Of a stretch of 24,176 bases of DNA, positions 1,841-18,304 are shown piece by piece. The notes below the pieces were generated by a model. The model did not search any database. It worked only from the letters and a program-made list of their open reading frames with translations, and had not been told where the DNA came from. Source of the stretch: Planoprotostelium fungivorum (lineage: Eukaryota > Evosea > Variosea > Cavosteliida > Cavosteliaceae); assembly GCA_003024175.1 (NCBI GenBank), contig MDYQ01000319.1:1-24176 (forward strand), written 5' to 3'. The translations under genes and the position numbers were made by a program. Each line of letters opens with the position of its first letter. Position 1 is the stretch's first letter.

Positions 1841-1882
1841 GCTTTTGTGTGGAATCGTATCGTCTGTTGATGTGTTCTCTTT

Positions 1883-2202
1883 ATGTCTGTATGATCTGGG
1901 GATGTGACATGACATCATGAATAAGTCTCTCAGGCCGAGAAAAATCAGTTGTCTTCTGAGAGTGGCGTTCAACGGAGCTACATCTCATACTCCAACCCAT
2001 CTGCACCGGGCAGCCGATCTTACACTTCTAAACCTACAACATCGAGCTACTCGAGTACCATCAACAGCAGTGAGAGCTTCTTCTTCTACACTTGCAATGG
2101 TTCGACGTCTACTTCTCCCTTCATCAACTGGGCTATCTCTCGCTCTGACAAGTCTGCTCTGAGAGGTGCGTCCTCTTAACATTGAGAGCTGACCCATCTC
2201 AG
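1883..2202 (+). CDS. Unknown protein, 5' exons (left part of a probably inverted locus)
   Basis: The clear coding exon is 1934-2165. It encodes a Ser/Thr/Tyr-rich stretch (RSYISYSNPSAPGSRSYTS, then SSESFFFYTCNGSTS, then FINWAISRSDKSALR). It ends in phase 1 at a good donor (GAG|GTGCGT). A 37-nt intron (2166-2202) follows, ending ATCTCAG. A possible start is ATG TCT at 1883-1888 spliced through 1889-1933 (GTATGA...CTCTCAG), giving MS|AEKNQL; this first mini-exon is uncertain. On the plus strand the sequence after the acceptor reads only about 20 codons before a stop, and it opposes a much better minus-strand reading. I do not recognise the family. Joining this exon to the minus-strand block at 2843 gives a phase-consistent protein (see the finding on inversion). 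Confidence 0.5.
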
Positions 2203-2203
2203 A
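2196..2203. repeat. Left arm of 8-bp inverted repeat flanking the flipped block
   Basis: ATCTCAGA at 2196-2203 is the exact reverse complement of TCTGAGAT at 2843-2850. Each arm also forms a 3' splice-site end (ATCTCAG|A) on its own strand. Such an arm pair is what a simple inversion leaves behind, although 8 bp can occur by chance. Confidence 0.5.
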
Positions 2204-2843
2204 AGTCGGTCAGTACGACACCAGGGACTATATCATCTACTCCTCTTTCAGTCCTGTATAGAGCAGTAGAGCTCGCTGTGTAACGGTTCCAGTCGAAAGT
2301 TGCGTTGGCACATCGGAAGGTATCAGTGTGATCGATTTGGACCCTGGAACGGTCAACATAAGTGAATTCTGCCTTGCCGTCAGCGGCGGGTACTCGAGCA
2401 GCGCTCCAAGAGAGGCCTGTCTTAGCAGTATCATTTTTGAAGTACAAACGTAACATCTCGGTGTAGTTGCTTTTGGAGAATAAAACGATGATGGCGATCT
2501 TAGCACTCGAGTTCGCAGCGGTTGGATATGTGGGCATACCCCATAAATCGACCATCACAGTGTCTTGATCGACAGCAAAAGCTTGGTTCACTTGATTGGA
2601 GGGCGCCAAAGTGTATCGCATGCTAAACTTGTTGGAAACGTCTACGCCGGTAACAATCTCTGCCTGGATGAAATATGGTCAACAGGTGAACAAAATGACT
2701 CAGGCTTACCTCTTTCAGTTTCTTGGACATCGTAACTGTTGTCTGGAAGTTCATAGCGCGGGTGGCCTCTTCACTGATCTCCTCTCCTTGGTCGTATTCG
2801 CCGTTTCCGTTGTGGTCCAGATAGATCACTGTCGCCGGTGCAT
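2199..2843 (-). CDS. Unknown protein, middle exons on the opposite strand (putative inverted segment)
   Basis: Minus-strand exons 2843-2710 and 2663-2199 are separated by a textbook 46-nt intron (GTAAGC...CATCCAG), and the reading frame continues across it. The upstream side has an acceptor (AATCTCAG) but no start codon in the first exon. The protein begins DAPATVIYLDHNGNGEYDQG, with a DxNxNGxxDxGE calcium-loop-like motif as in SdrD-B or dockerin-type repeats. It continues with hydrophobic, beta-rich sequence (KIAIIVLFSKSNYTEMLRLY, FRCANATFDWNRY) and several NxS/T sites, which suggests an extracellular or lumenal protein. The open frame ends at TGA 2201-2199, inside the inverted repeat. No family recognised. 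It is either a separate gene nested in the plus gene or its inverted middle; I favour the latter. Confidence 0.55.
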
Positions 2844-2850
2844 CTGAGAT
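2843..2850. repeat. Right arm of 8-bp inverted repeat flanking the flipped block
   Basis: TCTGAGAT pairs with ATCTCAGA at 2196-2203. It lies exactly at the minus-strand acceptor of the exon that starts at 2843. Confidence 0.5.
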
Positions 2851-2862
2851 TAACCTAAACAG

Positions 2863-3045
2863 GGTGGAGGAAATAGCTATCTCATGACGTTCAGCATCAA
2901 CGCCACACAGCCAAAGGAATGGTACTGGTCCCTCGCCTTCGGTAGTGAAGGCCCGATTGCTGTGGCGGATCCAGGTCCCAACACTAGTGTGATTCTACAA
3001 ATGAATGTGGTTCTCTTCCTTGTGCTGTTTGCCTCGATGCTATAG
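2863..3045 (+). CDS. Unknown protein, 3' exon with hydrophobic C-terminus
   Basis: A plus-strand exon follows a good acceptor (ATTAACCTAAACAG at 2849-2862) and reads GGGNSYLMTFSINATQ-type sequence. It then has PKEWYWSLAFGSEG, PGPNTSVILQ and a hydrophobic tail (NVVLFLVLFASML) before TAG at 3043-3045. An AATAAA follows at 3057-3062. The end resembles a GPI-anchor signal or a single C-terminal membrane segment; this is inference. There is no start codon and no plus-strand coding exon immediately upstream, so the exon is orphaned unless the block between is flipped. The antisense frames of this exon contain stops or weak sequence. Confidence 0.55.
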   Translation, partial: GGGNSYLMTFSINATQPKEWYWSLAFGSEGPIAVADPGPNTSVILQMNVVLFLVLFASML

Positions 3046-3056
3046 TCATTCGATGG

Positions 3057-3062
3057 AATAAA
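3057..3062 (+). terminator. Poly(A) signal AATAAA
   Basis: AATAAA lies 12 nt downstream of the TAG at 3043-3045, supporting a plus-strand transcript end here. Confidence 0.55.
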
Positions 3063-3424
3063 ACTCAATCAGACTCAAAGATTCACTGCAATTCGTTTTA
3101 TAGATCATCTCATGAAGATCCAGTGTCGTTTGCATCTGATCTCACCACGATCTTGTGCCAGCTGTATGGATTGCAGAGAGTTTGTTAACGACAAACGAGA
3201 AGAAGAGAAAGCAACACCATCTAAAATAGACCGATCTGCTCGGTTGATGGTGTCACGCTCCGCAGACCAGCATATATCGTTTATATACGATTAGGGAGAT
3301 TTGATGTATCATAAATTAGGATGAAAATAGGTTGGTACGTTCTTTCTCCTTCAAAAAGTACACATGAAGGGAACGTTGTAGATTCACTCTCAACTATACC
3401 AACAGAGAACATCACGGTGTGACG
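3063..3424. other. Intergenic stretch upstream of the CLU-TPR gene
   Basis: About 360 bp without a convincing gene. A 60-codon open frame at 3112-3294 has no recognisable content. An AT-rich patch around 3271-3290 (ATATATCGTTTATATAC) is a possible TATA-like element for the gene starting at 3425, but the distance is long. Confidence 0.4.

Positions 3425-12018
<8,594 letters not shown>

Positions 12019-18272: not shown

Positions 18273-18304
<32 letters not shown>

What the first reader, a model, noticed from the sequence alone, without database searches (positions are those of the whole stretch)
1883..3062. A gene whose middle exons lie on the opposite strand: about 650-bp inversion at 8-bp inverted repeats
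Seen: plus-strand coding at 1934-2165 and 2863-3045, and convincing minus-strand coding with a perfect intron at 2843-2199. The minus block has no start codon, the right plus exon has no upstream partner, and ATCTCAGA/TCTGAGAT inverted repeats sit exactly at both junctions (2196-2203, 2843-2850). Inference: flip 2203-2843. The left exon (phase 1) then meets the block's first exon (phase 1) across a normal 37-nt intron. The block's last exon can join the right exon across an intron of roughly 35 nt, and the total is a single frame of about 333 codons. Either the genome carries a real microinversion (disabling, polymorphic or switchable), or the assembly is wrong. Nested antisense genes are the third option.
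Basis: partly seen in the sequence, partly recalled or inferred. Interest (0 to 1): 0.8.

Follow-up and report, generated by a model that had tools for sequence, protein, structure and literature searches.

The report
Gene with its middle possibly flipped
In a gene-dense stretch of DNA from an unidentified eukaryote, the middle part of what looks like one small gene reads backwards, most simply explained by a short DNA inversion that would break the gene, though an assembly error or two overlapping genes cannot be ruled out from this one sequence.

Summary
The described anatomy is there: plus-strand coding at 1934-2165 and 2863-3045, a two-exon minus-strand block at 2843-2199 with a normal 46-nt intron, and an 8-bp inverted repeat (IR) at 2196-2203/2843-2850. 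A gene model trained on the rest of the window (67 introns) prefers the block flipped. All four pieces can then read on one strand, and the last exon's stop is followed 11 nt later by AATAAA. The left junction at the IR is excellent: 37-nt intron, good splice sites, matching phase. The right junction at the IR has no good splice-site pair, other breakpoints up to about 60 bp away score better, two other 8-bp IR pairs score about as well, and 1084 of 4620 nearby flips give a four-piece parse, so a single frame after flipping is weak evidence by itself. Unflipped, a nested antisense gene pair needs introns longer than any other predicted here, or weak splice sites. The searches open to me found no homologue, and I had no reads or related genomes. 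A microinversion is most likely; real versus assembly or amplification artefact cannot be decided. I saw no evidence for a switch.

The parts
1883..1888 (+). possible first exon (ATG TCT), weakly supported
   Evidence: in frame with 1934 across a 45-nt intron 1889-1933; donor 1889 scores -2.07, acceptor 1933 4.21
1934..2165 (+). left coding exon, Ser/Thr/Tyr-rich, ends in phase 1
   Evidence: only open frame of six, coding score +6.8
2166..2202 (+). 37-nt intron, valid in either orientation of the block because its acceptor lies inside the IR arm
   Evidence: donor 5.95, acceptor 5.31
2196..2203 (+). left arm of the 8-bp inverted repeat, ATCTCAGA
2217..2663 (-). block exon 2 (149 codons if it ends at donor 2216; the frame runs on to TGA at 2199-2201)
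   Evidence: only open frame of six; stop position
2664..2709 (-). 46-nt intron within the block
   Evidence: donor 6.13 (41 of 67 trained lower), acceptor 3.25 (16 of 67 lower)
2710..2843 (-). block exon 1, with the sequence YLDHNGNGEYDQGEE; sub-threshold match to Pfam GEVED
   Evidence: PF20009, 18.0 bits against a cut-off of 24.4, E 0.0053; coding score +12.2
2843..2850 (+). right arm of the 8-bp inverted repeat, TCTGAGAT
2863..3045 (+). right coding exon with TAG stop; last 14 residues strongly hydrophobic (mean Kyte-Doolittle 2.48)
   Evidence: only open frame of six, +5.2; acceptor 2862 scores 5.12 (48 of 67 lower); hydropathy
3057..3062 (+). AATAAA, candidate poly(A) signal 11 nt after the right exon's stop
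   Evidence: 7 AATAAA on the + strand of the window; 4 of the 5 other plus-strand gene ends have one at -9 to +43, 0 of 5 minus-strand gene ends (one of those five has only 16 nt left in the window)

Best explanation
A short paracentric microinversion of about 640 bp lies inside one plus-strand gene of a compact eukaryotic genome, between a cation-efflux transporter gene and a CLU/TPR gene. Shown: coding pieces lie on alternating strands, and flipping the middle lets all four read as one gene. Inferred: breakpoints either at the 8-bp inverted repeat, by template switching or microhomology-mediated repair, or within about 60 bp of it. As the sequence stands, the plus transcript would run from the left exon through the 37-nt intron into 19 antisense codons and a stop, losing the GEVED-like segment and the hydrophobic tail, so the allele is probably a null. 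Whether the inversion is in the organism or arose in amplification or assembly cannot be told from one sequence. The confidence covers both cases; I put roughly 0.45 on a real genomic inversion and 0.2 on an artefact.
For: Each of the four pieces is open with a positive coding score in the predicted frame. Unflipped best parse 4.6 against 9.8 for the IR flip and a gain of up to 15.5 for nearby breakpoints. The first five top-grid models that I printed all contain the four pieces, and the six best fine-grid flips all have the four-piece parse. 2 of 200 dinucleotide shuffles reach the local gain of the IR flip. Left junction: good donor and acceptor, same phase, 37 nt. Right exon: strong acceptor with no upstream partner, and AATAAA 11 nt past its stop. 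IR of 8 bp between the two gaps: 1.4% by chance. The GEVED-like segment lies upstream of the minus block's internal ATG.
Against: At the IR no right-hand splice pair is good. Breakpoints away from the IR score better, and the 2002/2842 and 1962/2906 IR pairs score about as well. 1084 of 4620 nearby flips give a four-piece parse, so frame restoration is easy with free breakpoints. Another flip elsewhere (107/882) gains 16.3 spuriously. Pfam does not score GEVED higher when the left exon is joined (15.3 bits, against 17.6 for the block alone and 16.7 with the present upstream minus frame). No homologue tested the exon order. The flipped model still lacks a convincing first exon.
Confidence: 0.65

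Rival explanations
1. Two real genes: a plus gene (left and right exons) with a minus-strand gene nested in its intron.
For: The block has a stop codon (2199-2201) and an internal ATG (2754); a 5' exon MQTTLDLHEMIYKTNC can be spliced on with donor 3086 (2.5) and the block's acceptor (5.3). A left-to-right splice 2166 to 2950 or 2869 keeps the frame.
Against: The eight best plus-strand splices shown need introns of 704-881 nt and the eight best minus 5' exons need 223-544 nt, while the introns of the models (69, two of them in this locus) run from 30 to 183 nt. The best long-intron acceptors are weak (2.05, 0.44). The internal ATG would drop most of the GEVED-like segment. The right exon's good acceptor (2862) is out of phase with the left exon's good donor (2166).
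Confidence: 0.2
2. Assembly or amplification artefact: the organism's DNA has the block in the other orientation, and the contig carries it inverted. (This is a share of the best explanation, not additional to it.)
For: In multiple displacement amplification 406 of 475 chimeras (85%) were inverted joins, with up to 21 bp of complementarity at the junction (PMC1855051, passages). A second inverted feature, a perfect 28-bp inverted copy, lies 1 kb away.
Against: A clean inversion needs two junctions, whereas the chimeras in that paper are mostly inverted joins with an intervening deletion. An 8-bp repeat is far shorter than assembly k-mers (own knowledge). The rest of the contig looks clean, for example a 2129-codon, 34-exon gene model without interruption.
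Confidence: 0.2
3. A decayed or multiply rearranged gene remnant, in which the inversion is one of several changes and exact breakpoints are lost.
For: Weak right splice sites, unresolved first exon, and coding scores per codon (0.05-0.28 for the four pieces, three of them below 0.1) that are mostly lower than the 0.14-0.26 of the other ten gene models.
Against: All four pieces are still open without a stop, and the left and block introns are intact.
Confidence: 0.12

Closest known systems
Microinversions flanked by short inverted repeats (human-chimpanzee set, PMC8755829, passages seen)
   Same: Clean inversion with inverted repeats at the edges; 23 of their 59 have repeats of 8 nt or more, and all 59 have repeats of at least 3 nt
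   Different: Theirs are 17-33 nt long, and only one of 59 touches an exon, without affecting coding sequence; here about 640 bp carrying two coding exons would be inverted, and there is no ortholog to prove it
Drosophila microinversions in or near genes (PMC1779558, passages seen)
   Same: Many are below 1 kb and lie within genes
   Different: None overlaps a host-gene exon there (7 of 143 overlap an exon of a nested or overlapping gene); here the host gene's own exons would be inverted
Scrambled germline genes of spirotrich ciliates with inverted segments (PMC2394655, passages seen)
   Same: Coding segments on opposite strands, short repeats (pointers) at junctions
   Different: There each junction has its own pointer and intervening sequences separate segments; here one and the same 8-bp pair would serve both junctions and conventional introns are present
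Inverted chimeras of multiple displacement amplification (PMC1855051, passages seen)
   Same: Inverted joins at short complementary sequences
   Different: Single junctions, mostly with an intervening deletion; here two junctions with no apparent loss

Membership tests
Microinversion at short inverted repeats | Segment reads on the opposite strand from its flanks within one gene | tested here: met
   frame and gene-model tests
Microinversion at short inverted repeats | Inverted repeats at both breakpoints | tested here: inconclusive
   8-bp IR present (1.4% by chance), but the coding evidence prefers breakpoints up to about 60 bp away
Microinversion at short inverted repeats | Other orientation in a relative or another allele | not testable with these tools
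   no homologue in viral contigs, GTDB contigs, phages or PDB; own genome not held
Nested antisense gene pair | Each gene complete with start, stop and introns typical of the genome | tested here: not met
   best options need introns of 704-881 nt (plus) and 223-544 nt (minus), or weak sites; against 30-183 nt
Programmed or switchable inversion | Both orientations coexist; recombinase and its sites | not testable with these tools
   no reads available; no recombinase search was made
Ciliate scrambled gene | Distinct pointer for each junction, with eliminated sequences between segments | tested here: not met
   the same 8-bp pair would serve both junctions; the gaps read as ordinary introns
GEVED domain (PF20009) | Score above Pfam's gathering cut-off | tested here: not met
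   18.0 bits (exon alone), 17.6 (block), cut-off 24.4

The most novel reading that the evidence does not exclude
A reversible intragenic inversion in a eukaryotic nuclear gene. The IR arm contains the 3' splice site, so in both orientations the left exon splices normally, either into the GEVED-like exon (anchored protein) or into a short antisense tail (98-residue truncated protein), which would act as an on/off switch.
Probability: 0.03. Interest if true: 0.85.

Novelty: new member of a known kind. Interest (0 to 1): 0.33.

Why it matters
If real, it is a case of a microinversion that captures whole coding exons together with their introns, a kind of event that the surveys I saw found in introns and non-coding parts rather than in host-gene coding exons. 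It would give a gene-breaking structural allele with a short repeat at or near its edges, and it shows how strand-alternating exons can reveal such events or assembly errors without any relative to compare. If an artefact, it marks this contig for checking.

Tried and rejected
Homologue searches that found nothing: Pfam on the pieces and on joined versions (only sub-threshold GEVED), NCBIfam (0 families for three queries), PDB sequences (best E 0.31 and 0.33, antibody chains, taken as chance), phages, viral contigs with block exon 2, a DNA 26-mer, a CLU exon, the right exon and the left exon, GTDB contigs with block exon 2. Rfam 0 matches and ARAGORN 0 genes in the window.

Structure: AlphaFold2 on block exon 2 alone gave pLDDT 31.6 and pTM 0.22; not used, no fold search made.

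A first gene-finder setting over-predicted introns (239-286 per iteration) and was dropped; the stricter one is used throughout. Its fixed intron and start penalties were set by hand, so score differences of a few units should not be over-read.

The gain of 9.5 for the IR flip over the whole window partly comes from fusing the gene to the upstream transporter; the local gain of 5.19 is the fair number against the local shuffles. The best-ranked IR flip of the window (107/882, +16.3) is spurious: it destroys the transporter's conserved region by fusing an edge fragment. Pairs 2002/2842 and 1962/2906 gain as much as the chosen IR; I do not prefer them because they turn part of the left exon round, but that is judgement.

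Absence of AATAAA after the minus block was considered as evidence and rejected: 0 of 5 minus-strand gene ends have it anyway.

Full report
Setting. The window looks like a gene-dense eukaryotic nuclear stretch (inference from introns and gene content; the organism is not identified and no genome is held). Leaving the focus locus out, the remaining ten hold 67 introns; the lengths listed, which include two introns of the locus, run from 30 to 183 nt. Pfam places a cation-efflux domain in the gene upstream of the locus and a CLU domain in the long TPR-rich gene downstream, and also a sugar transferase and a kinase elsewhere.

The observation. The left piece (1934-2165, +), block exon 1 (2843-2710, -), block exon 2 (2663-2217, or on to a stop at 2199, -) and the right piece (2863-3045, +) are each open with a positive score in the stated frame; in three of the four it is the only open frame of six. 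The block's intron is 46 nt with a donor of 6.13 and an acceptor of 3.25. The 8-bp arms are exact.

Does flipping help? The best parse of the locus as it stands scores 4.6: a minus gene from an internal ATG. Flipped at the IR it scores 9.8, but that parse stops inside the block and omits the right exon; forcing the right exon gives 6.3 to 9.6 depending on the donor. On a 6-bp grid of 9568 flips the best gain is 14.5, with nine flips within 1 unit, all with a left breakpoint at 2228-2258 and a right one at 2854-2866. At single-base resolution the best of 4620 flips gains 15.5, at 2252/2851. The five best-grid models printed contain left exon, block and right exon in one frame. So the coding evidence points to an inversion with breakpoints close to, but not exactly at, the IR. 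These gains are maxima over many flips, and the fixed intron penalty favours joins without an intron, so the preference over the IR is not decisive.

Controls. Among 827 IR pairs of at least 8 bp lying 100-2000 bp apart in the window, 32 flips gain more than 0.5 and 6 more than 5. The focus pair is second (9.5 over the whole window), 2002/2842 third (9.2) and 1962/2906 sixth (6.4); the first (107/882, 16.3) is an artefact of merging an edge fragment with the transporter. In 200 dinucleotide shuffles of 1841-3424, the largest gain over about 13 IR pairs each was 6.9, then 5.2 and 4.2; the comparable local gain of the focus IR is 5.19, so 2 of 200 reach it (rounded). On the fine grid, 1084 of 4620 flips (23%) give a four-piece parse, so the statement that flipping yields one frame carries little weight alone. 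The chance of an IR of 8 or more between the two gaps is 1.4% by shuffling, and 83 of 7259 matched real intervals have one.

Junctions. Left, at the IR: donor 5.95, acceptor 5.31, 37 nt, phases match. Because the acceptor lies in the IR arm, this intron is valid in either orientation; in the present one it leads to 19 codons and a stop at 2261. Right, at the IR: the acceptor 2862 is good (5.12, 48 of 67 lower), but no in-frame donor with it reaches the lowest trained donor (1.58); the alternative pair 2825/2869 has a poor acceptor. The right exon is nevertheless likely the true 3' end of a plus gene: AATAAA follows its stop by 11 nt, as in 4 of 5 other plus-strand genes (range -9 to +43), with only 7 AATAAA on that strand in 24 kb; minus-strand gene ends show none (0 of 5).

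Rival: nested antisense genes. Plus-strand splices from left to right need introns of 704-881 nt in the eight best shown, with acceptors of 0.44-3.5. A 5' exon for the minus block needs 223-544 nt in the eight best of 115 options; the 10 options with introns up to 200 nt have weak sites. These are atypical of the window but not impossible; I leave 0.2 for this reading.

What the gene might be. Block exon 1 carries a stretch resembling GEVED (PF20009) below the curated cut-off. GEVED was defined from bacterial fibrillar adhesins, always downstream of an NR2 domain there (PMC10952558, passages). Joining the left exon did not raise the GEVED score (15.3 bits, against 17.6 for the block alone and 16.7 with the present upstream minus frame), so it neither supports nor refutes the join. 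The last 14 residues of the right exon are strongly hydrophobic, which suggests a membrane or GPI-type tail; I found no signal-peptide exon, and the first exon is weak. Function is therefore only a guess: a surface or membrane-tethered protein.

Mechanism. Microinversions with short inverted repeats at their edges are known; in the human-chimpanzee set 23 of 59 have repeats of 8 nt or more, and template switching or microhomology-mediated break-induced replication are the proposed routes (PMC8755829, passages). The Drosophila survey reports none overlapping a host-gene exon (PMC1779558, passages). An artefact remains open: inverted chimeras are the main product class of multiple displacement amplification (406 of 475, PMC1855051, passages), though these are single joins. 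The ciliate scrambled-gene model fits badly, since each junction there has its own pointer (PMC2394655, passages).

Literature. Six searches were made; of their results I saw listings, and passages of the five papers named above. I did not search for a report of this locus, since the organism is unknown.

Verdict. Observation sound in its anatomy; inversion the best reading (0.65, including about 0.2 for an artefact); exact IR breakpoints and the right intron unproven; no evidence for switching.

Noticed in passing
3236-3263 and 3458-3485: A perfect 28-bp inverted repeat, 194 nt apart. One arm is inside the first coding exon of the CLU/TPR gene, the other upstream of it, so the start codon (3425) lies in the loop. 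It is the longest exact inverted repeat in the window (next 15), and the RNA fold of 3225-3500 is far more stable than shuffles (z -7.06, 0 of 200 as stable). Either a templated inverted insertion or a regulatory hairpin, or a sign of an amplification artefact.
   Followed up: partly
window, all gene ends: AATAAA lies at -9 to +43 of the stop in 4 of 5 plus-strand genes outside the locus but in 0 of 5 minus-strand genes (one of them with only 16 nt of downstream sequence).
   Followed up: no
2002-2009 and 2835-2842: A second 8-bp inverted repeat (TGCACCGG/CCGGTGCA) whose flip joins the left exon to the GEVED-like exon in frame without an intron and scores about as well as the reported pair.
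   Followed up: partly
3425-12018: CLU/TPR gene model of 2129 codons and 34 exons with many TPR-like repeats and a hydrophobic stretch near its C-terminus ([16 protein letters not shown]), as if tail-anchored.
   Followed up: no
9413-9502 and 18273-18304: Short tandem repeats rich in ATCAC/CATCA in an intron of the CLU/TPR gene, and a (TCA)n tract in an intron of the glycosyltransferase-like gene.
   Followed up: no
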